64,000 nt of DNA from Nothopassalora personata (lineage: Eukaryota > Ascomycota > Dothideomycetes > Mycosphaerellales > Mycosphaerellaceae). Where the stretch lies: NCBI GenBank assembly GCA_033816765.1, contig CM066299.1, positions 806,001-870,000 of the forward strand, read 5' to 3'. Positions within the stretch are counted from its first letter, which is position 1, and each line of letters opens with the position of its first letter. The notes under the pieces were generated by a model. That model saw only the letters and a program-made list of their open reading frames with translations. It searched no databases and had not been told where the DNA came from. Below are positions 1,482 to 62,760 of the stretch, one piece after another. The position numbers were made by a program, and so were the translations under genes.

Positions 1482-1677
1482 TGTTAAGGGATGTCGCAAT
1501 GTATAGCACGCCCACGACCTACTAGTCGTAGATGAACTAATTCTTGCCTTTTGTTTAAGACGCATCGCGCGTCGCAAGGTGTACGTATGCGTGTTACGTG
1601 CGGCTTAGTAGCCGGTCGCGACCGTATATTACATGCAAGGCTACATGTAAGGGTTAGCTACTAGGCTGCCCCTTACA
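1482..1677 (-). repeat. 3' LTR of Ty3 chromovirus 1
   Basis: 196 bp, starts TGTTAAGGG and ends CCCCTTACA on the plus strand. It differs from the partner LTR mainly by C/T and G/A changes. Confidence 0.93.
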
Positions 1678-1680
1678 ATT

Positions 1681-1692
1681 GCCTCCCCTCCC
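1681..1692 (-). other. Polypurine tract of Ty3 chromovirus 1
   Basis: On the minus strand this reads GGGAGGGGAGGC, three bases from the 3' LTR. It is the expected primer site for plus-strand DNA synthesis. Confidence 0.75.
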
Positions 1693-1978
1693 GTGCGAGC
1701 TGTCCTTAGCTCGCTAGTTACTACGTAGAGGTTCCTACGTACTTCTAGAATCATAGTTGCTATACGGCCTATATACGGGTTACGTGCGTGTCGTTATGTA
1801 GGTATAGGTGAGTAAGGCTTAGTTACTATGCCGACGTAGCTAGTTAGGGGCATAAAACTCTAGCCTAACCTAGCCCTATTCTCCTAGCACGTTCCCTAGC
1901 GTACTACCTTCGTTACACTACTACTACGTACCCGCACCGCACCCGCACCGTAAGCGCCTCGCTAGCATTATTATTATC

Positions 1979-2918
1979 ATATCTAACGGGCCCTCCTCGC
2001 CTCTATCCTCTAGCCGCTCCGCCTCCTTCCGTAGCATTAGTAGCGACAGTACTACTACTACTAGCACCTTAGAAGACGAGCGCCGCTAGGCGGCTCTAGT
2101 GCGCGACGCACCTAGAACGCCTAGTGGTCGTAAGCGACTAGCATCCCCCTCGTAGCTACTAACGCCCTCGCCCGCTACTAAGCTCTCGTAGAGGATTAAT
2201 ATATACATACGGTGCCTCCTATACTTCGTTAAGGGTAAGTCTCTACGCGCGCCGCCTACGATTCGTATACTAACCACTTACTAGACGAAGCCGATAACTG
2301 TAATAGTGTCACTACCGGCAAGCTCCTAAGGAAGTGCGGCCGCTGTAGGCGTAATAGACATAAGTGCGTGCCTAATACTAGCTACGCTATCGCCTCGCTA
2401 GTAAGCCGCCTACGCGCCGCGCGCTCCTAGCGCGACTTCCTTACGGCTATAATAGGCTAGGCGCCTACAGACCTCTAGCAGTAGGAGCTAGTGGAGTAGA
2501 TCCGCCTGTGTGCCTAGCTAGGTAACGACATCACGGAGGTAAGTCGCTACTTCGCTCCTACGAGTCGACTACTACTCGCGGGGGGAGCTCTAGTGCGTCT
2601 CCTATGCTTTAGCTAATCCTTTCTATAGGCCATTAGGTAGTTCAATGCCTATAAGCATAAGCGTGCCGGGGAAACCCGTATGCGTGCCCCCGCCGCTGCT
2701 ACTACTGCCGCCGCCCCCGCCGCCGTAGCCCTCGCGCTCTAGTAGGAGTAGAACCGCGCCCTCAATGGGCTGTTCGAACTCGGCCGCGCCGTAAGTTGTA
2801 TGTTCCTCGTATACGTGTACCCTACTAACCGTAGTCCTAGTTCCTATAGGCGTAGAACATCGACACTACCGCCGCCGACTAGGCATTTCTACCTAAGTTA
2901 CTACGCGACGATAACTGA
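1979..2918 (+). pseudogene. Antisense four-exon gene for a six-Cys/coiled-coil protein inside Ty3 chromovirus 1
   Basis: A plus-strand gene opposite to the retrotransposon. Exons 1979-2234, 2285-2538, 2629-2790 and 2841-2918 are joined across introns of 50, 90 and 50 bp. Each intron starts GTAAGT and ends TAG; two have clear branch sites (ACTAACC, near 2270 and 2825) and the 90-bp intron has GCTAATC. The exon phases agree (1, 0, 0) and sum to 750 nt, exactly 250 codons, ending in TGA (2916-2918). All other in-frame stops are TAG. The presumed start is ATA (1979-1981), readable as a mutated ATG. The product has a Ser/Thr-rich N-terminus, a cluster C-x2-Y-x8-C-x11-C-x2-C-x6-C (about 2213-2385; the Tyr codon TAC would come from TGC), then a Leu/Arg/Gln-rich probable coiled coil. 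The end of the cluster resembles half of a fungal Zn2Cys6 motif. Function unknown; a retrotransposon-carried regulator is one possibility. Confidence 0.72.
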
Positions 2919-3079
2919 GGCGCTTGCCTTACACGCTGCTCGCGGGCTCGTCGCCTACTACTACTCTACGTGGCCCCTAGTAGGCGCGCTACTCTTTAGC
3001 TTTTGTTTTGTTTATAGTTGAGAAAAGTTTTATTTATACTCTAGTGCTCCTATGCTAGTCTTATTTACTTCTCCTTAAC

Positions 3080-6000
3080 GCCTTATAGTCGGCTACTATG
3101 CGATCCGCATTCGCGAGGCCCTCCGCCGGTTCCTAGCTATTATACTCCTCTAGCTAGTCCTTCTACTAGACTAGATACTATAGCTTACCCTTACGCTTAC
3201 GCCTATCTAGCACTACCTCTACCTTATACTCTCCGTCCTTATTAGCTAGAGGGGGTACGGGTCCATCCTTATCGCTACCGATATACGGCTCGAGGAGAGA
3301 GATATAGAAGACGTTATAGAGCCTTAAGTCGGCTAGTAGCGCTAGGCGGTACGCCTACGAACCGACAGCGTCCGTAATGCGGTATAGGCCGATAAACTTC
3401 GGACCTATCTTCTTCTTTAGCACTGCTAACTTAAGCTTCTTCGTTAATAATAGGACTAAGTTACCTACGCGGTAGGTCTTAGCTTAGTAGGTCTTATTGT
3501 AGTAGCGAGCCTAGCTTTCTACTATAGCCTTCTATTGCTCCTCGAGTGTAGCGCGTAGTTTTTGTATACGACTCGCAGCTGTTACCGCTACTAATACTTC
3601 CCCCCCCCTAGGTCTCGTCTCGAGATCTAGTTAGTGTAGGGGTAATCTTAGGTCGCTAACCGTACGCTATCTCGAACGGACTTATCCGTAGTATTAGGTA
3701 GATGCTGTTATTAGCTACGAATTTAGCAACTGCAAGCCACTTAGCCCACTCAGTTTAATTATTACTATAGTAATAACGAAGATATTGTTCGAGGGTTTAG
3801 TTTACCCTCTTAGTTTAGCCGTTAGTCTAAGGGTAAAAGGCCGTGGATAGCTTACGCTTTACACGCGCCTCGAAGTAGAAGTTACTCTAAAACTAACTAG
3901 TAAAGACCGGACCTCGGTCGCTCACTATGCCTAACGGGACACTATAGTGTCGCACGACTTCGTCTCGTAGGAGCCTCGTAAGCTCTACGGCTGTGCAAGT
4001 CTTCGTCGTCGGGATGTATAAGCTTATTTTTAAGTAGCGATCGACTATCACTAGGATCGCATCATACACGCAACCGGCTCGCGTGCTTAGAGGTAGGTCC
4101 GTAATAAAATCTATGGTAATTTCCTACTACGGTCGCTCCGGTCTAGGAAGCGGTTGTAGCTCGCCGTAGGGTCGATAGCGCCTCGCCTTCGAACCCTAGT
4201 AGGTTCTATAGGCTTAGACGTATTGTTTCACGTCCGTGCTAAGTGAGTCCCACTAATAATTACGTCGTAACAGCTCTTTAGTCTTAGTCCTTCTAAAGTA
4301 ACCCGCGAGGACGTTATCGTGGTGCATGCAAATTAGATGCGACCTGATTGCGCAATCCCTAGGTACTACGATCGCATCTCCGTAGTACATAAGGTCATCC
4401 TTTACATACTATCCCTTAGCGTCCCTCGCGCTTAGCGCCTGCGCTAAGCATGCGACACACTAGTCGTCTTACTGCTGCGCGATCTTCATTAAGAGTAGGA
4501 TTAACTTACCCGTCGAGCTATAAGCTTGACCCTATATTACTATAGCGCACACTGCTACTAGTAAAGACGGCTTGTCTTAATAGGGAAGGTCACCTCTCTG
4601 TACTACCATCGCCTCGCCTATGTCGCCCTACATCGCCTCGTAGGTGGCAAGCACGCGCTTTACCGTCGGCTCGCTTATCCCTTCTAGAGACTCCTTCTAG
4701 AAAGACAGCTTACTTTGCAAGGTAGGCAGCAAGTTCGAAGTTTATTACGTTATAGCTACGTAGTTACTACGTCTCGAAGGCGCGTCGGCTAGGTTAGTCT
4801 TACCCGGCCGATGCTCTACTATAAAATTAAAAGACTGTAGGAACGTAGCCTATCGAGCTTACCGCCTATTTAGCTACTTTACTATTATAAAGCCCTATAG
4901 GTTAGCGTAGTCGACTAGCACTCGCACCGCATGCGTAGCGCCCTCTAAGTATAGCCTCTAATGCTTAAAAGCCTCAACTACTGCAAGTAGCTCCTAATCG
5001 TGCGTCTCGTAGTTGCACTTAGCTAGTATTATCTTACGTGAATAGAATGCGATAGGATGCTACTTAGTACTAAACAATTAGGATATAATACCTACGATCG
5101 CGAAACCTAAGGCATCCGTCTCGACTCGCGTGCGCAGCGTAGGATCGAAGTGCCTAAGTATTAGTGCACCTAAGAATCCGGCCTTAAGCTGTCGAAACGC
5201 CTACTCTTCGCTTAAGGTCCACGTAAGAGGGCCGTACTTCTTACCGTCCTTAGATCCCTTTAGCAGGTCCGTTAGGGGCTTGTAGACCCTTAAGTATTCT
5301 TCTATAAAACGCCGGTAGAAGTTGTAAAACCTAAGGAAGGACTAGACCTTATAAAAGGTCGTAGGTGTAGGCCATTCCTCGATAGCGGCTACCCTGCTCC
5401 TGTCTATCGATACGCCTACGGCGCTCACGACAAACCTAAGGAACTCTACACTCTCCTAGAAGAAGTAACACTTCTTAGGGTTTGCGAACAGGGCAAACTT
5501 TTATAGCCTCTCTAGCACCGCGCGTACGGCTCGCACGTGTGCCTCACGCGTCTCGCTATAGATGAGGATATTATCTAGGTAGACTACGCAAATGTCATTA
5601 ACTAAGCCGGTTAGCGCCTTGTTAATATACCCTTAAAAGGTTACCGGTGCGTTAGTTAACCCGAACGGCATTACTAGGTACTCGTAGTGTCCGTATCGCG
5701 TGCGAAACGCAGTCTTCCACTTATCGCCTCGCTTAATAGGGATACGATAGTAGGCGTCCTTCAAATCGATTATAGTAAAGAACCTAGAACCTAATAGCCT
5801 ATCTGGCGTCTCGCTAATTAGGGGCAGGGGGTATCGGTTCTTTACTATAATCTTATTTAGGCCTCTATAATTAACATAGAGCCTAAGAGTGCTATTCTTC
5901 TTTAGCACGAACAGGATAGGCGCACCCGCCTCGCTTGCGGACCGCCTAATCCACCCCTTCTCTATTGCTTACGCAAGGTACTCCTTTAAGGCCTCCAACT

Positions 6001-6790
6001 TAGTTAAGGACTAGTAGTACAGCGGCTTAAAAGGGGGTTTCTTTCCTTTAATAAGATTAATCGCATGCTTAAGCCCGTCGGGCATCTTGCGCTTCGCCTG
6101 CTTATTAGGTACGTATACATCTCGGAAGTCTATAAATTCTTTAGGCTACGAGGGGCCCTCTCCTTTAGGTACTACTGCAGCAATAGCCCGAACACTCATC
6201 GCATAAACCTGCTTTAAGCTCTCGAGATCCTTAAGGAACTCGCGTGCGTTACGCTGCTGAACCGTAGGCGTCTCTACACCGTAGTACTACTGGTCATCCT
6301 TATCGGCCTTCACTATCCGATTACGATACCGCTAGGGTCTACCTAAAATTACTAATAGCCTACCTATAGGCACCGCGTAGCAGATGGCGTTACTTACGCG
6401 CTCTACTCCCGCGTCATTAGCGAGTCGCAGCCGAACCGTAAAGGCGCCGTAGCAATACCCTAGATCATGCGTATACGACTCTAACTTCGGTAGCCTTGCC
6501 CTATTAATGGGTTGCATTTGATGTCGGAGTATATACTTATACGACACTAGGCTAAGATCCGCACAGTTATCTAGGAGAAACGTGGCCTCGCGAAAGCCCT
6601 TACGAGTCTCGACTGCGCCTCGCAAGTGACGCGCTGGACACGCATCTACTCGCCTTAAGGGGTCGACTTTAGGAAAACTCGGACTTAGGAGCGACCTACT
6701 TATGGTCCTCTGCCTTTTCCCTAGTCGCTGCGATGGATACACATCCACTCGCCTTAAGGGGTCGACTTTAGGAAAACTCGGATTTAGGAG
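3080..6790 (-). pseudogene. Pol of Ty3 chromovirus 1 (protease-RT-RNase H-integrase-chromodomain)
   Basis: Read on the minus strand. The protease lies in the open stretch 6748-6332 (LLDNCADLSL). The RT core is at 5908-5633, with [32 protein letters not shown] and [12 protein letters not shown]. RNase H follows at about 5250-4800 and integrase at about 4600-3700. A chromodomain (EYKVEVVLDRRKRKGKL, then an EYNS-EPAEGL segment) sits at about 3250-3080. This order, with integrase after RT, marks Ty3/Gypsy; the chromodomain marks a chromovirus. Multiple TAG/TAA codons break it. Confidence 0.88.
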
Positions 6791-6849
6791 CGACCTACTT
6801 CTAGTCCTCTACCTTTTCCCTAGTCGCTACCCTTCTTAGTTAGAGCCTT

Positions 6850-7960
6850 TGCAGCGTCTACCCTACGAACCGCTTACGCGCTACGGTCCTTCCATAGGTG
6901 CCTATTCGGGCAATCCGTCTTAATGTAACCCTTCTTATGGCATCTATAGTACTCCGCTTTAGTCCTATCGAAGGTTATAGACGATCCGCCGGCGTCCCGC
7001 CGGTAACTCGCACCCGGGTCGCGCGACGCCTAACTATGCTTCTACTGCTTCGAGCCACGATCGCTTCGCCCTTAGTCGCCCTTAGTCTCTCGCCTACGGC
7101 GACCATGCTGCCCACGGTCGTGCCCTCCGCTGCCACGCTCCGTACTTTTAATGCGCGAAGCTAGGATTACTAGTTCCTCTCTAGTTGTTAGGATGTTATA
7201 AAACTTGACGATTGCGGACCGTAGGCTAGGCGTAAGCTTAGCGAGCATATGTCGCACGCGTTGCGCCTCCGTATAGTCCCCTAACTGATCCTCTATAACA
7301 TCTAGCTCAGTCGCAAACTGACGCACTGTCTAGTTGTCCTTCTGTTTCACCGCCTTATACTCTAACATTACGTTAAGCACGCGGTTCATAGGATCACCGT
7401 ATGCGTCTCGATAGAACTCCTTAAAGTCCTGGTATGTATACCCTTTAAGGTTAAGGACGCTATGGTTAGCGTGCTATCGCTCACTTGCCTCTCCGCTTAG
7501 GTACATAACCCTATATAGGACCTTTAACTCGTTCGTCGCATACGTGCCGCCTAAGAGGGTAAAGATAAGAGAGAGCTCCCTTAGGAATACCCGTGCTTTC
7601 TTAATCGAGTCCCCTCTAAAAGGCGTAGGTTCTTTAAGACGCCAACGTGTCGCATGCGATGCGACCGCGCCTCGAGCTGCGATATTATCGTTAGTTACTA
7701 TAGATGGAGGAGGGGAGGGGGAGTAGGGGATAGTTCTCCGCCGGATTCGCCCTAAGGGTCCGCCGGCGGCACGCTTACGTCCCGTAAGATCTCTAACTGT
7801 TCAATCTCCCTCTATATCCCCTTCTCCTTAACCTCTGCCCGAAGGGCATCCCTCCTTACGACTAAGGCTGCACGCCTCGCTTGTTGCTAGGCCCTAGGGC
7901 TTAGGGGAGCCGTAGGCGTAGCGCTACTATCGTCGCGTTCGGACTCTATAGCGTGTATAG
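6850..7960 (-). pseudogene. Gag of Ty3 chromovirus 1
   Basis: On the minus strand from near the 5' LTR: a charged N-terminal coil, then capsid-like text (FRGDSIKKARVFLRELS...; RQFATELDVIEDQLGDYTEA at 7326-7267; KLTPSLRSAIVKFYNI), a basic Arg/Gly stretch, and a damaged CCHC knuckle at about 6945-6905 where Cys and His codons have become Tyr codons. Interrupted by TAG stops. Confidence 0.75.
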
Positions 7961-7974
7961 ATTGTAACGAAGAG

Positions 7975-7983
7975 AAGAATTAG
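7975..7983 (-). other. Putative self-priming primer-binding site of Ty3 chromovirus 1
   Basis: Three bases inside the 5' LTR, the minus strand reads CTAATTCTT. This is perfectly complementary to AAGAATTAG in the LTR itself (plus-strand 8042-8050). No tRNA 3' end matches that I recognise. The layout fits Tf1-like self-priming, where the 5' end of the RNA folds onto the binding site. Confidence 0.45.
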
Positions 7984-7986
7984 AAC

Positions 7987-8182
7987 TGTTAAGGGATGTC
8001 GCAATGTATAGCACGCCTACGACCTGCTAGTCGTAGATGAACTAATTCTTGCCTTTTATTTAAGACGCATCGCGCGTCGCAAGGTGTACGCATACGTGTT
8101 ACGTACGGCTTAGCAGCCGGTCGCGACCGCATGTTACATGTAAGGCTACATGTAAGGGTTAGCCACTAGGCTGCCCCTTATA
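7987..8182 (-). repeat. 5' LTR of Ty3 chromovirus 1
   Basis: 196 bp, aligned end to end with 1482-1677. Its terminal CA has become TA (8181-8182), a RIP-type change. Confidence 0.93.
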
Positions 8183-8187
8183 AGTAT

Positions 8188-10946: not shown

Positions 10947-12192
10947 CTACGACGATCTTGGCCAATGCTCTGCCGCAAGTGCTCGCACATCTTCAATGAT
11001 ACCCTGCGGGTCTTCTGCTGCAGCGTAGTGACCGCCGTCGTTGCGCTCTGCAAGCATTGTCAGGATGGGAGACTGCTCGTTGTTGGTAGCACTCACCCTT
11101 GTAAAACACCAGATTTCCCGTCCGCTCCACAGCTCTCTTCGAGCTCGGCTCAGTGTCCCAGTAAAACGACGTGTATCCAAACGGCACAGAGATCCGATTG
11201 TCCGGCTTCATCGCAAAGCTCGCAAAGTTCTCATGTCTGACATTCTCATAGTAGCACAGCATACTGGGCATGATGGTGTCGGTGAAGTAGTATATGCTCG
11301 CAGTAGCAAGAATATGCTGATCCCAGTATCGCTTTTTCTGGTTCTCGGGGCCAGCAGCTTCGTTGTACTTCTCACCGACCCACATGAGGATACCCAGTGG
11401 ATTGTCATTGAAGCCAAAGCCGATGGTGTGAGGTCTGGTCCGCATCTTGATGGCGTAGCCCATGTGGTTCTCAAGCCAGTCATCGACACGGTTCTGCACT
11501 TCTTGCTCGCGCTGTGTATATTCTACGCCGTCCGGCAAGGGAGACGGCGCAAAGTTGAAATGAACCAGTTTGCAGGAGTCTGTCAGCTTGGAGCCCATTT
11601 CGCGGCCGATCCAGTGTGCCCAGTCGCCTCCGTGGAAGTAGTATTGCTTGTAACCAAGCTTTTTCATCAGCTTGTCGTAGACATGTGCGCTGTCTTGAAG
11701 CGTCCAGCCGGCTCTGGGTGGCCAATCTGAAAATCCATATCCGAACAGAGATGGTACCACGACGTGAAACGCGGGCTGGCTGTCGTCCCCTGGATTGGCA
11801 AGCTCGTTCCAGACCTGGTTGAACTCGTAGAATGACCCCGGCCAGCCATGGACCATGATCAAAGGGATGGCATCAGGGCGTTTGGACTTGGCGTGGACGA
11901 AGTGAGTCTTGATGCCATCGATCCTGGTGAGGAAGTGTGGTGCGGAATTCATGCGATCTTGGTGCTCATACCAGTCGAAGTCATTGAGCCAGCGGTCGTA
12001 CAAGTGAGCTCCCCATTCGTATGTTGGACCGTACTTCTTGCCGGCATCCGGGACGATCTCCTTGGGTGGCAAACGGGTATCTTTCAGCTTGCGTTTGAGA
12101 CGATCCACTTCTTCTGGAGGTATGTCGACCTTGAAAGGAACGATGTCGTGGAAGTCAGCTGCGATGCTGCCCATCCATTTTTGCGTGCTCAT
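10947..12192 (-). CDS. Epoxide hydrolase, alpha/beta-hydrolase fold with EHN domain
   Basis: Exon 1 is 12192-11097 and exon 2 is 11047-10947; the 49-bp intron (11096-11048) begins GTGAGT and ends GCAG. Splicing gives 398 residues. Without splicing the catalytic His is lost, which supports the intron. Residues 15-125 are the N-terminal EHN region. HGWPG (115-119) forms the oxyanion hole, Asp190 in HGGDWAHW is the nucleophile, and His372 in RNDGGHYAA is the catalytic base. The enzyme hydrolyses epoxides to vicinal diols; substrate unknown. There is no signal peptide, so it is probably cytosolic. Its start lies 1,042 bp from the divergent sugar-porter gene, so shared control is possible. Length and motifs are normal for the microsomal/juvenile-hormone type family. 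Confidence 0.92.
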
Positions 12193-38017: not shown

Positions 38018-38091
38018 GGCTAGGTAGCTTAGTAGTAGAGCGTAAGCTGTCTACACTCTTAAGGTCGTAGGTTCGATTCCTACCCTAGTCG
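38018..38091 (+). tRNA. tRNA-like gene or pseudogene inside Ty3 F
   Basis: A 74-nt tRNA-like sequence. A 7-bp acceptor stem (38018-38024 with 38084-38090, one G-T pair), a 4-bp D stem with A box TAGCTTAGTAGTAGAGC, and a perfect 5-bp T arm with B box GGTTCGATTCC (38070-38080) are all present. The anticodon arm is irregular: four pairs (TAAG/CTTA), one mismatch and a 9-base loop, so the isoacceptor cannot be named. It is probably a mutated tRNA or tRNA-derived sequence, right after the antisense ORF. Confidence 0.55.
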
Positions 38092-38184
38092 CTCGTCGGC
38101 CGAGAGATCGATTGTCGTTAGTTATATCGGCGGACCCATTTTTAGTATTGTCGGATCTTTTGCTAACAGTTTTGTAGGTTTTGT

Positions 38185-41100
38185 TTTAGTTCCTAGGTAT
38201 TTTCTAATTCGTCGTATCCTTTCTACTTAATAAGGTATCGCTAACCTTTCTTATCTAGGATTTTTTCAACTTCAAATTCGTTTTCTACTTCTAGCTCGAA
38301 ATAGAAGCTTTCTTAGTAGGGTGTTTTAGCGTCTACGGGTTCTAACTTAGAGATATAGAAGACTAGGTGAATTTTTGCGTTAGGTAGTAGCCGTAGACGG
38401 TAGTTAACTAGTCCTATAGCTTTGTCGATAAAAAATGGTCCGACCTTAACGTAATCTAGTTTCTTAGTCTGTCTTCTTGTTCTTAGGTTTTTTATAAGGA
38501 GATAGACCTTATCCCCCTCTTTGAGTAGAGGTGCTATTTTTCTTATGTCCTGCCGTTATTAAGACAGTTTTTATTATGCATCTTCGATCGCCTTACGTGT
38601 TTCTTTATGCACTTCCTTAAGAGTATCCGTCGTTACGATTGCTCTTTCGGCTTGTAGGTAAGATCTAGGTGTTCTAAATAGGTTAGGATCTTTACTAAAG
38701 TTCGCATAAAATAGTGTCGTTAAAGTTGTCTCTAATTTATAGTTATTTAGTGCAATCTGCGCTATTAGTAGTAATAAAACCCAGTTGTCTTATGCGTAGT
38801 TAATGTAGTGTCGTAGGTATTGCTCGAGTGTTTAATTTATTCTTTCGGTTTATCCGTCTATCTCCGGATAATATGCTATTAACAGCTTGTGTTTAATTCC
38901 GATCGTTTCTATAAGCGTCTTCTAGTAGTTCGATGTAAATAACTTGTCTCTGTCCGTTATGAACGCTTAAGGGAATCCGTAGTACCGGATAAGTCTATCT
39001 AGTACTAGGTATCCGAGCTGCTCTATATTGTATGTCTCTAATGTAGGAATGAAGTGTGCGTATTTTATAAGTCTATTAACCATAACTAGTATTATGTCGT
39101 ATAGTTGTTTCGTAACTTAGTCTCTTAACGGTAGGAGTTTCGTAATAAAGTCTATTATAACTTCGTCCTATAGTTTCGTTGGTAGTGTCCTAAACTGTAG
39201 GTAACCGTATTTTGCATGTCTCGTAGCCTTATTTCGTTAGTAGTGTACGCATTGTTTAATGTAGCGTAACACCTTAAGTCTCATCTATAGGAATGAGAAA
39301 CTACGTTATATTAGGTCCATTGTCTTTAAAGTTCTAGGGTGTCCACAAGTTAGTCTATTATAATGTTATCGTATATATTCTTCTTCTCGATCCCTTAGTA
39401 CCTAGTATTTTCCTTACGATATAGGGAATTGTTCGTCCTTATCGCCTAATATCCGTACGATGTTATTGAATTCTCTTATGTTAGCGCTAAGACTTCCGTC
39501 GGGGTTCGTCTTTAGTATCTTATGTTATACTAGTTCCTTTCTGTTAGGAACCGCTGTACGTTATCACAACTCGGGCTTGGATCTTTGCAGGGATGTCTCA
39601 ATCAGTTATGAAGGTAGTGGTTCCAAACAGTATATGGTGTATACTTAAAATGAGTTGAGCACGAGGCTCCTATCTACTTGCAAAAGAGCGTCGTCTATAT
39701 AGTGCCGTGTCTTGGCGTGATCTTTCCTGCTCTCTCTGCTCTCTCTGCTCTCTCGAGAGAGCACCCGAGAGCACTGAGAGCACTCTGCATATCGGGTGCA
39801 TCCGCTGGTCTGCTGGCATCGATTGGTTGGCTACGGGCTTCCCCAGACCGATCCGTAACACTTTCCTTCTATATAGTCGCTTCTTCGGCTTAGCGCGTCG
39901 GCGCGGCCGTTCTCTTTTCCTAGAGTATATTTAATTTTGAACTTGTATTGTCCTAGCAGCTCCGACTAGCGGGCTTGTCTTCGGGTAAGTTCTTTCGTCG
40001 TTATAAAGTACGTAAGATTCTTATAGTTAGAAAGAATCGTTAGCTTCGGTAGGCCCTCGACGTATACTCTCTAATGTTGCATAGTAGTAACAATAGCTAG
40101 AAGCTCTTTGTTATAGATTTCGTAGTTCTGTTTCGCTATAGTCATTTTCCGGGAGTAATAGGCTACTAGGTGTCTCTACCTATCGTGTGTCTATGTTAGA
40201 CACGCGCCTATTGCTATATTAGACGTATTGGTCTCGATGTAGACTTCCTTACTACTATCGAATAGTCGAAGCGTAGGGGCTAAAGCGCATTGTTCCTTAA
40301 GTTTCTAGAACGCTTTAATCTATTCCTTTCCCTATTTCTAGGTAACGTCCTTTCTTATAAGCATCGTCATTAGTACTGCTATCTCGGCGTAGTTCTTAAT
40401 GAATTTCCGGTTGTAGTTCGCTAGTCTAAGGAATGATTATACGTTCTTAACTGTTTTCGGTTCTAGCTATTCTCTAATTGACTGTGTTTTCGTAGGGTCG
40501 ATCGTTATTCCTATAGTGCTAATAATAAAGCCTGAGAATTTAACTTCTTTCTTATAGAATTCGCATTTCTCGGGTGCTATCTTAAATCCTAAACGCGTAA
40601 GTCGTTCGAATACGTCCTAGACTTGTTTTATGTAATTCTAAAGGGATCCTTTCGTGTAGACCAATATGTCGTCTATGTAAGCGGTAACGTATACATCGAG
40701 TAGGTCTCTAAGTGTTTTATTAACAAGGTCCTAATAGAATGCGGATGCGTTAGTCAATTCTATTAGCATAACTAAGAATTCGTAAAGTCCGTATCTTATC
40801 CTAAAAGCGGTTTTCTATTCTTCTCCTTCCGCTATCCGTATAGCGTAGAAAGCATCTCGTAGGTCAATCTTCGTGTACTAGTCTAATCCGGTTAATCTGT
40901 CTTACGCTTCTTCGATGTTAGGTAGCGGGTATCGGTTCTTAATCGTGATCTCGTTTAACTTCCTATAGTCTTGCACGAGTCGCAACTTCCCGTTTACTTT
41001 TAGAACGAATATATATAGAGTTCCTATACTTAAGGTAGATCTTCTTATCTATCCTTTAGCTAGCTTCTCCTTTAGCTATTCTCGTAGGGTCTACAGCTCT

Positions 41101-55460: not shown

Positions 55461-55644
55461 TGTCACGGGCAGCCCGCGACCCTTCACTGACGATGCGTCG
55501 TCCCGGCGGAACCTCGGACCTTCCGCATCGGGTTAGCGCGGCTTGGCGATGCTTTATCTATCCGCCGCGCCTCGCGCTCCTCTTTCGTAGCTTCGTAGAA
55601 CAACAACTATCTCATTCGGACCCTATGGTACGCGCGCCCTTACA
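55461..55644 (+). repeat. 5' LTR of element E
   Basis: 184 bp, TGTCACGGGCAGCC ... CGCCCTTACA. TTTATCT at about 55551 may serve as a TATA box for a start near 55595. Confidence 0.96.
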
Positions 55645-55646
55645 GT

Positions 55647-55655
55647 TTGTTCTAC
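55647..55655 (+). other. Putative self-priming primer-binding site of element E
   Basis: TTGTTCTAC, two bases after the 5' LTR. It is perfectly complementary to GTAGAACAA in the same LTR (55595-55603), about where the transcript should start. No tRNA 3' end fits that I recognise. Confidence 0.55.
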
Positions 55656-55813
55656 CTCCCTACCCAGATCGCGGATCCAGGTAAGGGACGCGTAACAACA
55701 GGAACAGACTCACAGAACCGCGCACGGCGTAGATACAGAACTCGCGACTCGCAACATCGCAACAGAGGCAAACGGATTCAGAACACGGAACACGGTAAGG
55801 CACTAAGCAACAG

Positions 55814-57847
55814 ATGCCCAAGGAAACCAACGCACCAAAGGCCTCAGCAACAGGCCGCGTTGAAGGAAACAACATGACTTCCCAGCAGTCACAGACACAA
55901 GGCAAGCGCACCTCTCTTTTCCCCGACCTCTCCAGTTTCGACAGTCAGACACAAGGAGACGACACTCGGCGAGTCACAGTTGACACCGGTGTCGCGCTTC
56001 AGCAAGAGCTGGACAAGGCATGGAACAAAGCACAAGACAGGGAGCAGAACGGTGAGCTTGATTTCACAGAACTCTTCGAGCCCAGGGTGGGAGAAGAGGA
56101 GGACACACCAGTCTTCATTTCACACGACGAAGCCGAACACATCGCTGCCGCCGACTTCCAGAACATCACCGCCGAAGACCTGGCCACACTGACCAAGGAA
56201 CACCCGAAGACCGTCCACGATTTCGTGCTACGAGGATTCAACACTGCCATCATATCTAGCCAACAACTCGATGTGATGCAACGCGCCAATGCACTTCAGA
56301 ACAAGCAGTACCGTACGCTGTATGCCGAGTACGATCGCATCCACGGGATGCTCAAGACCGAACAGACCGCCCTCGCGAAGATGGCCCAGGACCTTAAGAA
56401 TAAGAACGCCGACACCCTCAAACTCAAGGCTGTCGAGAAGAAGTACAAGGATGCGAACGAGCTATGTCAGCAGTTCGCCGATATCACCGACTCGGAGAAG
56501 AAGAAGAGCCAGGCATTACAAGCTGAGGTTGATGACCTGAAGGTCCGTCTGCAAGCAGCAGAGGACCAGGCACGAGGACGTCGTTCGCGCTCGCGCCCAC
56601 GCTCACGCCCACGATCACCACCACCCCGCGAGACCTCACTCGAGGTGCTCCAGCGTCGGTACCGTGAGGCGGCAGCAGGAGGAGGTGGCGGAGGAGACGA
56701 TGATGACGATGGCAATGGAGACAAGGACAGGGATCGCCGTGGTCGTGACCATGACCGACCACGTCGTGATGAGCGCCAAGGCACACAAGGCACGCAGCGG
56801 TCAGGCGGTGGTCGCAGCAACCGCACGCAGCAGACACCTCTCGTGGACCTGCCGGAGCGTCTCATCAACATCGACCCCACCCTCGACCGCAGCATGAAGA
56901 TCGGCAAGGGTGTGCCTGACCCAAAGAAGTTCAAGAACGATGACGACCCGACTTATGACAGCTGGTACACAAGCATCCTGCTGAAGTTGACAGTCGCGAC
57001 GTTCCGCACTGAACAGGACGCCCTACGCTTCCTGTATGGATGGACGGACGGTGAGGTGCAGAAGACTGTGAAGCCTCGCATCCCCATCCCCGGGCACCAG
57101 GCTTTCAACGAGTTCATGACTGGCGAAGAACTGTTGGACTGGATGACTCGACAGTACGGCGTCCGCAACGAGGCCACCAAGGCTGCAGTGGACATCACTA
57201 CCTGCAAACAGGCTCAGAAGGAGAACTTCGTCCCATTCTTCGCACGCTATTCCAAGCTGAGGGCATGGGTTGACTGGAGTGACGAGACCGAGTTGATGCT
57301 GTTCCGCACACGCCTCAACAAGCGCTACTACATCAAGACCTTCGGAGACCGCGAGGTGGACCGACGTCTGAACAGCATGCAGGACGTGATCGAAGAGTGC
57401 ACTGCACTGGACGAGCAGTTCTACGAGACCGAGCAGCTGTACCCTCAAGAGAACAACAACCGCCCACGCGGCAATGGAGGAGGCAACCAGAACGGCAACG
57501 GCAACGGCAACCAGAACCAGGGCAACACAGCTGCAGCTGCAGCCGCTGGTGCTGCCGGCGCCGTCGTTCAGCGCCCACCACAGTACGTAGGCACCAAGAA
57601 GAAGGAAGACTTGCCAGCTCACCTTCGGGACCTCCCACCGCTCAACTATGAGGGTCGCGAGGAATTGAAGAAGCAGGGCAAGTGCTACCGATGCCGCACC
57701 GGACCCCACTTATCCAGCAATACCGAGTGCCCGATGTATGGCTACGACGGCGACTATCGCCCACCGCGCCCGCGTAACAACAACGGAGGCAACACCAACC
57801 TCAGTTCCCTGGCCGCCGGGCAGGGAAATGGCGAGGCCACTGCCTAA
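55814..57847 (+). CDS. gag: Gag of Ty3 chromovirus E
   Basis: 677 residues, open from ATG to TAA. The order is an acidic N-terminal region, a coiled coil at about 160-255, an Arg/Ser-rich stretch (about 256-275), an Asp/Gly/Arg-rich linker, then a capsid-like domain at about 375-550 (DSWYTSILLKLTVATF; FFARYSKLRAWVDW). After a Gly/Asn-rich linker, a CCHC-like knuckle has Cys624, Cys627, His632 and Cys639; its last spacing (6) is longer than the usual 4. It would form the particle shell and package the RNA. Its last 70 nt overlap the pol frame, and a G GGA AAT slip site lies 15 nt before the stop codon. Confidence 0.93.
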   Translation: MPKETNAPKASATGRVEGNNMTSQQSQTQGKRTSLFPDLSSFDSQTQGDDTRRVTVDTGVALQQELDKAWNKAQDREQNGELDFTELFEPRVGEEEDTPVFISHDEAEHIAAADFQNITAEDLATLTKEHPKTVHDFVLRGFNTAIISSQQLDVMQRANALQNKQYRTLYAEYDRIHGMLKTEQTALAKMAQDLKNKNADTLKLKAVEKKYKDANELCQQFADITDSEKKKSQALQAEVDDLKVRLQAAEDQARGRRSRSRPRSRPRSPPPRETSLEVLQRRYREAAAGGGGGGDDDDDGNGDKDRDRRGRDHDRPRRDERQGTQGTQRSGGGRSNRTQQTPLVDLPERLINIDPTLDRSMKIGKGVPDPKKFKNDDDPTYDSWYTSILLKLTVATFRTEQDALRFLYGWTDGEVQKTVKPRIPIPGHQAFNEFMTGEELLDWMTRQYGVRNEATKAAVDITTCKQAQKENFVPFFARYSKLRAWVDWSDETELMLFRTRLNKRYYIKTFGDREVDRRLNSMQDVIEECTALDEQFYETEQLYPQENNNRPRGNGGGNQNGNGNGNQNQGNTAAAAAAGAAGAVVQRPPQYVGTKKKEDLPAHLRDLPPLNYEGREELKKQGKCYRCRTGPHLSSNTECPMYGYDGDYRPPRPRNNNGGNTNLSSLAAGQGNGEATA

Positions 57848-57863
57848 GCGTGGCAGACAGTGG
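57823..57863 (+). promoter_or_regulatory. Probable -1 frameshift signal between gag and pol of element E
   Basis: Heptamer G GGA AAT (57823-57829) has X XXY YYZ form in the gag phase. After a 7-nt spacer, CCACTG (57837-57842) can pair with CAGTGG (57858-57863), or CTGCC with GGCAG inside it; the gag stop codon lies in the loop. Slipping back one base enters the pol frame, which is open from 57778. Confidence 0.6.
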
Positions 57864-60800
57864 TCAACCGAACAACCAAGGACAGAAAGAGCATGAGATT
57901 GAGAGACACAGAGTGCAAGAGCAAGACACGGATACAGACTATGGTGAGGAGCTGAAGATATCGGCCTGCGCATTGGAGCCGCAGCAACCAGATGTACACC
58001 CTCACATAGTACTCCCAGTAATGATACAGCATGGGAAGGCACGAGGCCTTGTAGACTCTGCTTCCACCTCTCTCTTTCTCGACTGGAAGTTCACACGCAA
58101 ACACAGAATACCCTTGATACCCCTTGTGCGCAACAAGAACCTGACCCTTGGGGATGGTAAGGCTGCTGCACGTCGCATCACGCACGTAGCCCTCGTCGAT
58201 GTTGATATCGACGGTCATCACGAGCAAATGCTATGCTACATAACCGACCTCGAATACGACATCGTCCTGGGCCTGCCGTGGCTGAGCACGCACAACCCAA
58301 ACATCTTCTGGGAGACCGGTGAAGTGGCACTCAGATCAGACTACTGCTTTGGTCACTGTCTTAAGAACAAGACATCGACAACAGTCCAGTCCCTGAACCA
58401 TCGACACCGACAACGTAAGGAAGCAATGAAATATGGACCAGAGCCCTTCACCGATGATCGCAGCTTCACGGCAGGAGGGGCAGAAGCAGAACTGAACCTA
58501 TCCTCGATGGGCCTGTACGACGATGATGAGGAAGTCGAGTGTATAGGCGTCACGCAGCGCGCCTTCGAGATGTACGCGCACCGACCTGGCGCTGAATGTT
58601 TCTACATACTATCTACCGGCAAAGAGGACGAAGAAGGCGATGGTGAGATCAAGCTGAGCGCAATGGCAGCTGATGACTTGGATCAGTTCCTGAACAAGGA
58701 GTTCAACCATAACCCGAAGGAGAAGCTCCCACCAGAATACCATGATCTCGTAGATGCATTCTCAGCGAAAGACCATGAAGGACTTCCTCCTCACAGACCT
58801 GGAATCGACCACGAAATTCACATCAAGCCTGATGGGCCCCAAGAACCGCCATACCGTAAGCCCTACGGACTGGCGCCTCAGGAGAATGAAGCAGTCAAGA
58901 AGTGGGTCACCGAACAGGAGCAACAAGGCAAAGTCCGGCCAGCAGGACAGAAGACGAGCCAATCGCCGGCACCAGTACTGGTAGTCAGAAAGCCAGGCGG
59001 TGGACTGCGCGTGTGCATCGACTACCGAGGACTCAATGCGATCACTATCAAGAACAGGTACCCTATACCGCTAATCCAAGAGACACTGAACCGCATGCAC
59101 GGCAAGAGGTACTTCACGAAGCTGGACATCGTCGCAGCCTTCAACAAGCTTCGCATTGCAGAAGGGCACGAATGGCTTACAGCATTCGCTACACGATATG
59201 GGGTGTACGAATGTCTTGTGTTACCATTCGGCCTATGCAATGGCCCTGCGTCGTTTCAGTCATACATTAACAGCGTGTTACAAGAACACCTGGATGACTT
59301 CGTCTCCGCGTACCTGGACGACGTTTTAATTTTTAGCGACACACTGGAGGAGCACATCGAACATGTGCGCAAGGTACTAGCAAAATTGAGGGATGCCGGA
59401 CTGACGGTCGACATCGACAAGTGCGAGTTCCACCAGCAGCGAGTTAAGTACCTGGGACTTATTATCACCCCAGATGGCATCGAAATGGACCCAGAGAAGC
59501 TTGAATGTATCCAGTCATGGGAAGCACCTTCCAACCTCAAGGATGTGCAGGCGTTCCTCGGATTCGCCAACTTTTACAGACGGTTCATCGAGGCCTTCTC
59601 ACGCCTCGCAGCGCCGCTGACCGAATTGACCAAGTCAAATGGACCTAGTAATCACAAGAATCGCAGGGTTGACTGGACACCAGCATGCCAAGCAGCATTT
59701 GACGCTCTGAAGGCAGCATTCAGCAAAGCCGGTATGCTCGCACACTATGTGCCCGGTAGGCAAACAGTAGTCGAAACGGACTCATCAGATTTCGTGAACG
59801 CCGGAGTGCTTTCTCAGTACGACGAGGAAGGCGTGCTTCACCCTGTAGCATTCTATTCAAAGAAGCTGAGCCCGCAGGAATGCAACTATGAGATTTATGA
59901 CAAGGAGCTTCTAGCGATTATTAAGGCCTTCGAGGAATGGCGCCCGGAGTTGGCCTGCGAGGCGGATGATGACACCATCGAACCCGTGAAGGTGTTCACG
60001 GATCACAAGAACTTGGAGTACTTTATGACCACTAAGCAGCTGAATCGGCGCCAGGCACGTTGGGCCGAATTCCTGTCCCAGTTCAACTTCCGTATTGTCT
60101 ATCGACCAGGTGTCCAAGGCACAAAGCCTGACAGCCTCACGAGACGCAGCCAGGACCTTCCGCAGGGGGTGGACGATCCGCGAAATCAGCATCAGCATCA
60201 GACGTTGCTGCCGCCTGAGCGATTTCTTAAGATCGACTCGATGCGCGCAACTGTCGAAGATGCGGCTGAGGATGTTGCACCTGTTGAGAACACACCTACC
60301 GCACCAATTGAGGAAGCCCTGAACCCGGAGGCCACCGAATTCATACCGTCCACGCAGACGCAGACAGCATCCGAGACGGAACAGGAAGCCGAACTCGAGT
60401 ACAGAATGACAATGGCTTATGCCGCGGATGCAGACCTGAAGTCAGCTATCAGAGCCCTGCAGAAGGGCGAGACCCCAGCACTCCTTCAGAAAGCGAAGGT
60501 GCATCCAGTACACTGCAAGGTCGAAGGGGACCTGCTGTACGTCCGTAACCAGTATAATGACTGGAGTCTATGGGTGCCAGAGGACCAGAAGCTCCGCACT
60601 CGGATAGTCAAGATGAACCATGACACCCCAGCGGCCGGTCACCCAGGCAGAGCCCGCACCTACGAGCTCGTTGCACGTGAATTCTACTGGCCTGGTTTGG
60701 CTAGATCTGTGCGCAGATACAACGCGAATTGCCGCAGGTGCCGCACGACGAAATCTGTGCATACCCAGCCACCTGGATTACTGCACCCACTTTCGGTGCC

Positions 60801-62652
60801 AGAACGACCTTGGCAACACATCGCAGTTGACTTTGTGGTTGACCTGCCACCAAGCGAACTCGACGGCATGACTTACACCAATGTTATGACAGTCACCGAC
60901 AGACTCACTAAGGAAGTGGAACTGATACCCATCGGCGCGATGACAGCGCAGAACGCGGCGCGACTTTTCTTAAAGCACGTGTTCACCCGGCATGGCCTCC
61001 CAGAAACCATCACGTCTGATCGCGGAAAGCAGTTCATCGCCACTTTCTGGAAGCGCCTATGCAAGATGCTGCGCATCAGCAGGAAGCTGAGTTCCTCCTA
61101 CCACCCTGAAACGGATGGGCAATCAGAACGCACTAACCAAGAGATGGAACAGTACTTACGCACCTTCACGAATGAGGCACAGAGCGACTGGGCCGACTGG
61201 CTGTGCTTAGCGCAGTTCGCTATTAACAACCGAGTGTCGGAGACCACTGGAGTGTCACCGTTCTACGCCAATGTTGGATATAACCCAGAGTTCACCGAGC
61301 GTATCGATTTGCAAGCAGGCAAGGACCGACACATGACAACCCTTCAGCGACTCGACAGCAAGTCAGCCGAAGCCTTCGCCAAACGCATCTGTGAGCTACA
61401 TCGCAATCTTCAAGAGAACATGAGGATGTCACAGGCGCTGCAAGCCGAAGCAGCAAACAGGCACCGAAGCATCCCACCAGACTACAAGGTTGGCGACTGG
61501 GTGTATCTAAGCACGAAGAACATTCGCACCACTCGACCATCCAAGAAGCTGGACCGCAGATATGCAGGACCGTACCAGATCACGGAGGTGATGCCCGCTA
61601 GGCTGTCATACAAGCTGAACCTGTCGGATGCATTGAGCGGACTCGATAATTGCTTCCACACCTCCCTGTTACAGCGAGCCGACAACCCCGATCTCCCACC
61701 GCTCGAGGGACAGCACCTGGCACCGCCGCCGCCAGTGGCCATCGAACCCGACACAACTGCAGCTGACGCAGTCGCCGATGTCACAGTCACAGCCCCGGCA
61801 CCAGAATATGAGGTGGACAAGATCTTGGACATGTACACGCGGAAGCGCGCAGGCAAAGTGAAGAAGGGAAAGAAGCGCAAGGTGGACACTTGGTACAAGG
61901 TGCGATGGACTGGCTATCAGGATATGGAGGCCGGAGAGACTTGGCAACCTGCAGAGGACCTGTTTGTGAGGGCAGCCGCCGCTCTTGCGGACTTTCACCA
62001 TAGCCGGCCGGATTTGCCCACGCCTCAGGGCTTCGCAACGCCATCTGACTGGTCTCCAGTCAATGAGGTGCTCGGACTTAACACGATCAGGGTCGACAGA
62101 GACACCGCCACAAATAAGCCTAGCCGAGCCTTGCCTCTGATAGAATCTGGTCAGCGCATGTTCACTACGCACCGCTACGATGATCAGGTTACAGGAAAGT
62201 CCGTCGTCCCAACTGAGGATCACGGTGCAAGCCGCCGCCCTCAGCTCTACGACAGAACAGACAGTTGTACCGATGTTCTAGCGAACCCTGCAGAGCCTGC
62301 ATTGATACCCAACCTTGGTCAAAAGGATCAGACGCGAGCGTTCGCCGAAGAGGGGCTTAGGCCCTGGGCGTGCCAGCAGTATGAGCAAACAGAGTCTGAT
62401 GCGCAAGCCGCAGCAGTAGTGACAGAGATGGAGGACGACCTTGAAGACGATTGGACGTTTGCACGATTATGGAGTTCGACAGGCAAGGGTGATAAGTGGC
62501 CGCACAAGACGATGGATAGGCGAGTTAATGGACTGAACGCTCAGAGGACTGAGACGAGTTTTGAGAGGGGGGGTACTGTCACGGGCAGCCCGCGACCCTT
62601 CACTGACGATGCGTCGTCCCGGCGGAACCTCGGACCTTCCGCATCGGGTTAG
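57850..62652 (+). CDS. pol: Pol of Ty3 chromovirus E
   Basis: The frame is open from 57778 and has no ATG at the start (57850 is GTG), so translation by -1 frameshift from gag is likely. Counting from 57850 (1,600 residues): protease with Asp69 (LVDSAS; DSA instead of DSG); RT at about 330-560 with YLDD at 488-491; RNase H at about 640-775 (ETDSSD, YDKELLAI, FTDHKNL); integrase with H2C2 zinc region (about 925-965) and catalytic Asp994, Asp1057 and Glu1093 (D-x62-D-x35-E); chromodomain at about 1320-1385 (YEVDKILD, WYKVRWTGY). A C-terminal tail of about 200 residues follows, running through the polypurine tract into the 3' LTR. All catalytic residues are present, so the enzyme set looks functional. 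Confidence 0.95.
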   Translation: MADSGQPNNQGQKEHEIERHRVQEQDTDTDYGEELKISACALEPQQPDVHPHIVLPVMIQHGKARGLVDSASTSLFLDWKFTRKHRIPLIPLVRNKNLTLGDGKAAARRITHVALVDVDIDGHHEQMLCYITDLEYDIVLGLPWLSTHNPNIFWETGEVALRSDYCFGHCLKNKTSTTVQSLNHRHRQRKEAMKYGPEPFTDDRSFTAGGAEAELNLSSMGLYDDDEEVECIGVTQRAFEMYAHRPGAECFYILSTGKEDEEGDGEIKLSAMAADDLDQFLNKEFNHNPKEKLPPEYHDLVDAFSAKDHEGLPPHRPGIDHEIHIKPDGPQEPPYRKPYGLAPQENEAVKKWVTEQEQQGKVRPAGQKTSQSPAPVLVVRKPGGGLRVCIDYRGLNAITIKNRYPIPLIQETLNRMHGKRYFTKLDIVAAFNKLRIAEGHEWLTAFATRYGVYECLVLPFGLCNGPASFQSYINSVLQEHLDDFVSAYLDDVLIFSDTLEEHIEHVRKVLAKLRDAGLTVDIDKCEFHQQRVKYLGLIITPDGIEMDPEKLECIQSWEAPSNLKDVQAFLGFANFYRRFIEAFSRLAAPLTELTKSNGPSNHKNRRVDWTPACQAAFDALKAAFSKAGMLAHYVPGRQTVVETDSSDFVNAGVLSQYDEEGVLHPVAFYSKKLSPQECNYEIYDKELLAIIKAFEEWRPELACEADDDTIEPVKVFTDHKNLEYFMTTKQLNRRQARWAEFLSQFNFRIVYRPGVQGTKPDSLTRRSQDLPQGVDDPRNQHQHQTLLPPERFLKIDSMRATVEDAAEDVAPVENTPTAPIEEALNPEATEFIPSTQTQTASETEQEAELEYRMTMAYAADADLKSAIRALQKGETPALLQKAKVHPVHCKVEGDLLYVRNQYNDWSLWVPEDQKLRTRIVKMNHDTPAAGHPGRARTYELVAREFYWPGLARSVRRYNANCRRCRTTKSVHTQPPGLLHPLSVPERPWQHIAVDFVVDLPPSELDGMTYTNVMTVTDRLTKEVELIPIGAMTAQNAARLFLKHVFTRHGLPETITSDRGKQFIATFWKRLCKMLRISRKLSSSYHPETDGQSERTNQEMEQYLRTFTNEAQSDWADWLCLAQFAINNRVSETTGVSPFYANVGYNPEFTERIDLQAGKDRHMTTLQRLDSKSAEAFAKRICELHRNLQENMRMSQALQAEAANRHRSIPPDYKVGDWVYLSTKNIRTTRPSKKLDRRYAGPYQITEVMPARLSYKLNLSDALSGLDNCFHTSLLQRADNPDLPPLEGQHLAPPPPVAIEPDTTAADAVADVTVTAPAPEYEVDKILDMYTRKRAGKVKKGKKRKVDTWYKVRWTGYQDMEAGETWQPAEDLFVRAAAALADFHHSRPDLPTPQGFATPSDWSPVNEVLGLNTIRVDRDTATNKPSRALPLIESGQRMFTTHRYDDQVTGKSVVPTEDHGASRRPQLYDRTDSCTDVLANPAEPALIPNLGQKDQTRAFAEEGLRPWACQQYEQTESDAQAAAVVTEMEDDLEDDWTFARLWSSTGKGDKWPHKTMDRRVNGLNAQRTETSFERGGTVTGSPRPFTDDASSRRNLGPSASG
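62563..62573 (+). other. Polypurine tract of element E
   Basis: GAGAGGGGGGG, three bases before the 3' LTR and inside the pol reading frame. Confidence 0.85.
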
Positions 62653-62760
62653 CGCGGCTTGGCGATGCTTTATCTATCCGCCGCGCCTCGCGCTCCTCTT
62701 TCGTAGCTTCGTAGAACAACAACTATCTCATTCGGACCCTATGGTACGCGCGCCCTTACA
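62577..62760 (+). repeat. 3' LTR of element E
   Basis: 184 bp, identical to the 5' LTR by eye. The pol frame continues 76 nt into it. Confidence 0.96.

What the first reader, a model, noticed from the sequence alone, without database searches (positions are those of the whole stretch)
1979..2918. Antisense, spliced four-exon gene carried by a Ty3 chromovirus
Between the chromodomain and 3' LTR, on the opposite strand, four exons with three GTAAGT...TAG introns (ACTAACC or CTAAT branch sites) join in consistent phase to exactly 250 codons ending in TGA. Every other in-frame stop is TAG, as CpA mutation would give. It predicts a six-Cys cluster followed by a coiled coil. An intron-bearing passenger gene antisense to a retrotransposon suggests it has its own promoter and is retrotransposed without being spliced out, since its introns run backwards in the genomic RNA.
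Basis: partly seen in the sequence, partly recalled or inferred. Interest (0 to 1): 0.88.

Follow-up and report, generated by a model that had tools for sequence, protein, structure and literature searches.

The report
Antisense intron-bearing gene in fungal retrotransposon
A fungal Ty3-type retrotransposon carries, on the strand opposite its own genes, an accessory gene with intron-like splice sites that is intact in recently inserted copies and is predicted to be spliced into a small cysteine-cluster protein that likely regulates the element.

Summary
On the + strand, between the chromodomain and 3' LTR of a minus-strand Ty3 chromovirus (1482-8182), four exons (1979-2234, 2285-2538, 2629-2790, 2850-2918) join in phase: 247 codons including TGA (not 250), with 15 in-frame TAGs and no other internal stop. 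The window copy is RIP-mutated.

Of 150 scored places in this genome, 25 have no stop in exon 2. Of 20 fetched, 17 encode a full 209-residue protein through two introns and one the full four-exon, 245-residue protein. LTR pairs are identical in 19 of 20; 17 of 20 have 5-bp target duplications.

Exon indels keep the frame (8 of 9 events, against 6 of 29 in non-coding parts). A diverged second family keeps the positions of introns 1 and 2. Intron 1 splits a six-cysteine cluster (C-x2-C-x11-C-x11-C-x2-C-x6-C), so splicing would be needed to assemble it.

Antisense genes in this position are known (brtn in Botrytis, plant aORFs, retroviral HBZ). This protein matched nothing in the collections searched. 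Transcription, splicing and function are untested. Best reading: an HBZ-like regulator of the element.

The parts
1482..1677 (-). 3' LTR of the element (element reads on the minus strand); the gene's 5' end faces it
   Evidence: LTR pair; 5-bp AGTAT flanks at 1477-1481 and 8183-8187 read
1678..1978 (+). spacer between 3' LTR and gene; would hold the promoter or 5' leader (inferred)
   Evidence: position only; indels here are mostly not multiples of three, 13 of 16
1979..2234 (+). exon 1: Ser/Pro-rich, basic stretch, first CxxC of the cluster; start codon lost in this copy
   Evidence: open in 19 unmutated rows except L082 (stop at codon 35)
2235..2284 (+). intron 1 (50 nt), GTAAGT, CTAAC, TAG
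   Evidence: GT-AG in 58 of 59 rows
2285..2538 (+). exon 2: last four cysteines of the cluster (C-x11-C-x2-C-x6-C) and helix-like Gln-rich part
   Evidence: same 254-nt length in all 59 rows and in family B
2539..2628 (+). intron 2 (90 nt here, 89-94 in copies)
   Evidence: GT-AG in 59 of 59 rows; lengths
2629..2790 (+). exon 3: Ala-rich and Gln-rich tail, partly deleted in the amplified young form
2791..2849 (+). intron 3 (59 nt), absent in 18 of 19 young rows through a 167-bp deletion
   Evidence: GT-AG in 41 of 41 rows that have it; deletion
2850..2918 (+). exon 4 with TGA stop (TAA in many copies)
3064..3609 (-). end of pol with SH3-like and chromodomain, convergent with the gene
   Evidence: tblastn; Pfam Chromo on the open relative
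3610..7986 (-). rest of gag-pol, RIP-mutated; RT and integrase pieces identified, the gag piece had no Pfam match
7987..8182 (-). 5' LTR

Best explanation
This Ty3 chromovirus carries an accessory gene on the strand opposite gag-pol that is predicted to be spliced from four exons into a protein of about 245 residues with a six-cysteine cluster, and that protein likely works as a nuclear regulator of the element, in the manner of retroviral HBZ. Shown from sequence: position, strand, open frame in unmutated copies, splice-site pattern, frame-keeping indels, persistence of the introns through many insertions, and introns 1 and 2 in a second family. Inferred: transcription starts in or just inside the 3' LTR and runs towards pol; only RNA made on this strand from integrated DNA can be spliced, because in the genomic RNA the introns lie backwards, so they survive reverse transcription; splicing of intron 1 joins the two halves of the Cys cluster; and the protein (basic stretch, metal-binding-like cluster, Gln-rich tail) would act in the nucleus on the LTR or on integration. 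The window copy itself was inactivated by RIP-type mutation. My odds: a real protein-coding antisense gene 0.93; the regulator role 0.4.
For: Position and orientation between chromodomain and 3' LTR. Of 20 stop-free places fetched (of 25 among 150 scored), 17 give a complete 209-residue protein, 15 of them identical, and L091 a complete 245-residue four-exon protein. Recent insertion: LTR pairs identical in 19 of 20, 5-bp duplications in 17 of 20. Exon indels multiples of three in 8 of 9 events against 6 of 29 outside. Eleven of 22 non-RIP differences between L091 and at least 35 of 40 old rows are synonymous, 4.9 expected, p = 0.003. GT-AG kept. Unspliced, the frame stops after 99 residues, and intron 1 separates Cys 77 from Cys 89. 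The 167-bp deletion of the young form keeps the frame only for the spliced reading. Family B shares exon 2 length, donors, and a TTGELLKKC core. Analogy: HBZ is antisense, spliced, starts in the 3' LTR and represses sense transcription (PMC3185765, passages).
Against: No RNA or protein evidence. No family, structure or homologue that would point to DNA binding. The cluster does not have the classical Zn2Cys6 spacing. In the substitution test one frame of the other strand does at least as well (13 of 22 synonymous). Between families A and B the non-RIP differences show no third-position excess (26, 22, 29 by codon position for L118), so amino-acid constraint is weak at that depth. The helix-like tail is largely lost in the amplified form. 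All copies come from one genome and were found by searching with the gene itself, so the share of elements without it is unknown.
Confidence: 0.5

Rival explanations
1. The gene is real and translated, but the protein acts outside transcription, for example in the virus-like particle as a nucleic-acid chaperone or as a copy-number inhibitor in the manner of the Ty1 p22 factor (recalled), using the Cys cluster to bind RNA.
For: The cluster has no match to known DNA-binding families, and basic residues lie beside the cysteines. The same coding evidence applies.
Against: An intron-bearing gene of its own strand points to nuclear, separately timed expression; antisense accessory proteins studied elsewhere (HBZ, APH-2, the product of Grande gene23) are nuclear (passages in PMC3185765, PMC7264820).
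Confidence: 0.25
2. The functional product is the spliced antisense RNA (a regulator by duplex formation or RNAi), and the reading frame is incidental.
For: Spliced antisense long non-coding RNAs of transposable elements were reported in the fungus Blumeria hordei (passages in PMC10648671).
Against: Frame-keeping indels in 8 of 9 exon events, complete frames in 18 of 20 stop-free copies fetched, and a deletion that keeps only the spliced frame are not expected of a non-coding RNA.
Confidence: 0.12
3. It is a host gene captured with its introns in antisense orientation, a passenger of little use to the element.
For: The introns look like ordinary fungal introns (50-94 nt, GTAAGT donors).
Against: It is present in two diverged families at the same place with the same two introns; stop-free copies keep it; no host or other protein relative was found (fungal control).
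Confidence: 0.1
4. It is a chance chain of frames in a GC-rich stretch, or the constrained frame is on the sense strand.
For: Other frames of an unmutated copy are also open for about 100-150 codons, and one frame of the other strand equals or exceeds it in synonymous count.
Against: Intron 2 indels of 1, 2 and 4 nt would break an unspliced frame on either strand; donors, acceptors and phases agree across 59 rows and in family B.
Confidence: 0.03

Closest known systems
brtn, the additional antisense gene of Boty-like Ty3 elements of Botrytis cinerea (Zhao et al. 2011, Virology 417:248; seen only as cited in PMC8365987, PMC7264820, PMC4227169)
   Same: An antisense gene between pol and 3' LTR of a fungal Ty3 element whose gag-pol ends in a chromodomain (passages)
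   Different: The original paper is not held, so intron content and cysteine pattern of brtn could not be compared; no BRTN-like hit turned up for this protein
Antisense aORFs of plant LTR elements (Grande gene23, RIRE2, Retand TRP28, PvRetro13)
   Same: Antisense, between pol and 3' LTR, carried by most copies of a family, suggested regulatory or DNA-binding role (passages)
   Different: Different protein, no TRP28 match; introns were not described in the passages seen; the plant Retand elements are not chromoviruses
HBZ of HTLV-1 and APH-2 of HTLV-2
   Same: Antisense gene near the 3' LTR, spliced (passages)
   Different: HBZ is a bZIP protein; none found here; start in the LTR and function are not tested here
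Fungal Zn(II)2Cys6 transcription factors (Pfam Zn_clus)
   Same: Six cysteines; second half C-x2-C-x6-C with basic residues
   Different: First half C-x2-C-x11-C instead of C-x2-C-x6-C (consensus recalled); no Pfam match at E up to 10
Spliced antisense lncRNAs of transposable elements in Blumeria hordei (PMC10648671)
   Same: Splice sites on the strand opposite TE genes in a fungus (passages)
   Different: Reported there as not encoding meaningful peptides; here the exons hold a maintained frame

Membership tests
Ty3 chromovirus (the carrier element) | LTR pair with 5-bp target duplication | tested here: met
   Window LTRs and AGTAT flanks; 17 of 20 young copies have 5-bp duplications
Ty3 chromovirus (the carrier element) | Reverse transcriptase, then integrase, then C-terminal chromodomain | tested here: met
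   RVT_1 and Integrase_H2C2 above cut-off, rve below cut-off; Chromo and SH3_Tf2-1 above cut-off in an open relative. The gag piece had no match. No RT tree was built
[quoted passage not shown]
Antisense accessory ORF between pol and 3' LTR (aORF-3R class, including brtn) | Present in most copies of the family | tested here: inconclusive
   Kept in 59 of 59 rows aligned, but copies were found by searching with the gene, so copies without it would be missed
brtn proper | Sequence relationship to BRTN | not testable with these tools
   Paper and sequence not held
HBZ-type retroviral antisense gene | Spliced antisense transcript starting in the 3' LTR | not testable with these tools
   No RNA data; only the splice-site pattern is shown
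HBZ-type retroviral antisense gene | bZIP domain | tested here: not met
   No bZIP match for the 209-residue form at E up to 10; the 245-residue form was not scanned
Zn(II)2Cys6 binuclear cluster | C-x2-C-x6-C-x5-12-C-x2-C-x6-8-C (recalled) and Pfam match | tested here: not met
   Spacing C-x2-C-x11-C-x11-C-x2-C-x6-C; no Zn_clus match

The most novel reading that the evidence does not exclude
A fungal retrotransposon encodes a spliced antisense cysteine-cluster regulator, a functional counterpart of retroviral HBZ. Its backward introns act as a strand lock: intron 1 cuts the Cys cluster in two, so the working protein can be made only from antisense RNA copied off integrated DNA, and thereby reports and controls the number of integrated copies.
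Probability: 0.25. Interest if true: 0.82.

Novelty: new variant of a known kind. Interest (0 to 1): 0.6.

Why it matters
Antisense accessory genes of LTR retrotransposons are listed in reviews with functions undetermined (PMC7264820, passages). Here one comes with introns, a defined Cys cluster, recent insertions that carry it intact, and well over a hundred RIP-mutated relatives in the same genome. That makes two questions testable: whether such genes are proteins under selection (the indel and open-copy data say yes here), and whether introns that survive reverse transcription by lying antisense are used to keep a regulator apart from the replication cycle. Fast evolution and masking of transposable elements may hide other such genes from fungal annotations (inference).

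Tried and rejected
Searches that led nowhere: Pfam with the RIP-mutated reading (0 families) and with the open 209-residue protein (Rpn3_C at E 0.046 and Herpes_UL92 at E 0.21, both below cut-off, taken as chance); the protein collection twice (no hit at E up to 1); PDB sequences (none at E up to 10); Rfam on the window (only a tRNA at 38018-38091). Control for the protein collection: a host epoxide-hydrolase frame gave 7,427 hits among 8,000 scored, many with fungal names, so fungi are held; genes of transposable elements may still be missing from it.

Considered and rejected: TAG as a reassigned codon (all 15 sites are RIP-type differences from an open copy); a classical Zn(II)2Cys6 factor (spacing and Pfam fail); a chance frame (see rivals). 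Weaker than hoped: the substitution test, because one frame of the other strand scores as well, and the A-B comparison, with no third-position excess. Rows dropped: L097 (rearranged) from the 59-row alignment. L093 is the one of 20 whose fetched LTRs differ (19 of 197); its right partner may not have been fetched. Identical LTRs without matching 5-bp flanks: L083 and L094.

A spliced, protein-coding antisense gene in a fungal LTR element was not seen in paper searches. These were read as listings; passages only were read in PMC8365987, PMC7264820, PMC4227169, PMC5987419, PMC11963269, PMC3185765, PMC10648671 and PMC12477816. Most subscription papers, the brtn paper among them, are not held.

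Full report
Where it is. The window is part of a 54.5-Mb, 40-contig genome. A host frame beside the element (10993-12192) matches ascomycete epoxide hydrolases; the best named hits are from Lithohypha, Cercospora, Pseudocercospora and Extremus. The class of the host was not settled. The element runs on the minus strand between LTRs at 1482-1677 and 7987-8182, flanked on both sides by AGTAT. It is heavily RIP-mutated: TpA/ApT is 2.27 in the element and 0.53 at 10-20 kb. Pieces of pol match reverse transcriptase and the integrase zinc-binding domain above cut-off and the integrase core below it; a gag piece had no match. The end of pol in an open relative has SH3_Tf2-1 and Chromo domains, and the window shows its relative at 3609-3064. 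It is a Ty3 chromovirus.

The observation. On the + strand, exons 1979-2234, 2285-2538, 2629-2790 and 2850-2918 join in phase to TGA: 247 codons with the stop, not 250 (donors). Fifteen internal stops are all TAG. The three donors are the only GTAAGT on the + strand of the element. A DNA search scored 40 full-length places including the window (of 497 candidates, plus one short fragment). The other 39 were fetched. All 40 carry the gene, 39 keep the frame, and L045 does not. In the 39, 14 to 16 TAGs stand in the frame, with one TAA in three of them. Most TAG sites are shared by all or nearly all rows.

Unmutated copies. A six-frame search with exon 2 scored 150 of 492 candidate places; 25 have no stop in exon 2 and 125 have TAG stops. 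I fetched 20 of the 25. Fifteen encode an identical 209-residue protein from ATG to stop through two introns, two differ by one residue (L095, L096), one stops at codon 35 (L082), one is rearranged (L097), and one (L091) is a complete four-exon copy of 245 residues with three introns. The other ends of these 20 insertions were fetched: 19 of 20 LTR pairs are identical over 197 bp, and 17 of 20 have identical 5-bp flanks. So the gene travels intact in very recent insertions. At all 15 stop sites of the window, L091 differs by a RIP-type change.

Is it coding? Among the 40 old rows, distinct indel events against the window are multiples of three in 8 of 9 cases within exons, against 1 of 5 in introns, 3 of 16 in the LTR-gene spacer and 2 of 8 between gene and pol (Fisher p = 0.0005). 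Of 22 non-RIP differences separating L091 from at least 35 of the 40 old rows, 11 are synonymous against 4.9 expected (p = 0.003); over all 141 distinct non-RIP differences it is 56 against 42.9 (p = 0.009). One frame of the other strand does at least as well on the first count (13 of 22), so this supports coding constraint but not the strand. The strand is fixed by the splice sites, by intron 2 indels of 1, 2 and 4 nt, and by the need to splice: unspliced, the frame ends after 99 residues.

The young form. In 18 of 19 young rows a net deletion of 167 bp runs from the Ala-rich part of exon 3 into exon 4 and removes intron 3. The number is not divisible by three, yet the spliced frame is kept, because 108 of the removed bases are exonic. 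That is a small natural test of the gene model (one chance in three). With intron 3 retained, L091 would read 299 residues.

A second family. One old copy lies nested in a diverged relative. Two copies of this family B (L118, L119) have exon 2 of the same 254 nt, GTAAGT donors at introns 1 and 2, introns of 53 and 88 nt, and a shared TTGELLKKC core; a nearer acceptor would give an intron 1 of 50 nt. The donor of intron 3 is less clear there. A search with its exon 2 scored 150 of 500 candidate places, all with stops. Exon 2 identity to L091 is only 57-58%, and non-RIP differences show no third-position excess. The structure is older than the split, but the protein changes fast.

The protein. 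Six cysteines lie at 74, 77, 89, 101, 104 and 111 of the 245-residue form, spacing C-x2-C-x11-C-x11-C-x2-C-x6-C, with a seventh at 159. Intron 1 falls between the second and third, so the cluster exists only after splicing. All 19 aligned unmutated rows keep the six; in RIP-mutated rows they are often tyrosine. No family, solved structure or protein relative was found, with a positive control for fungi in the collection. No structure prediction or coiled-coil test was run.

How it probably works. Inferred: transcription starts in or just inside the 3' LTR and runs against pol, the host spliceosome removes the introns, and the protein acts on its own element. The introns survive because reverse transcription copies the sense RNA, in which they are backwards. 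The best-studied analogue is HBZ (PMC3185765, passages): antisense, spliced, starting in the 3' LTR, repressing sense transcription. For antisense ORFs of plant elements a regulatory or nuclear role has been suggested, not shown (PMC7264820, PMC11963269, passages). I hold the gene itself at 0.93 and the regulator role at 0.4.

What is known. [quoted passage not shown] A Monilinia transcript similar to BRTN has been reported (PMC5987419, passage). I could not see the brtn paper and cannot say whether brtn has introns or a Cys cluster. Spliced antisense RNAs of transposable elements, described as non-coding, are known from Blumeria (PMC10648671, passages). Hence 'new variant of a known kind'.

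Noticed in passing
window 55461-62760: A second LTR element on the + strand with identical 184-bp repeats at 55461-55644 and 62577-62760, not RIP-like in composition, with an integrase-end/chromodomain-like match at 61378-62007 (31% identity). The passenger protein has no match there.
   Followed up: partly
window 38145-38516: RIP-mutated chromodomain-like remnant on the minus strand, about 33% identical to this element's pol end, close to a tRNA gene at 38018-38091.
   Followed up: no
L078-L097, L098-L117: A recent burst of nearly identical, unmutated copies beside at least 125 stop-bearing places of the same family: RIP seems not to act on the young copies, or has not yet.
   Followed up: partly
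L118, L119: Diverged family B with the same antisense gene layout; 150 of 500 candidate places were scored with its exon 2 and all have stops. L119 is itself interrupted downstream by other sequence.
   Followed up: partly
window 6631-6828: A 99-bp tandem duplication (92% identical) inside gag-pol.
   Followed up: no
L091 exon 3 to intron 3: If intron 3 is retained the frame stays open to 299 residues, so an alternative longer product is possible.
   Followed up: no
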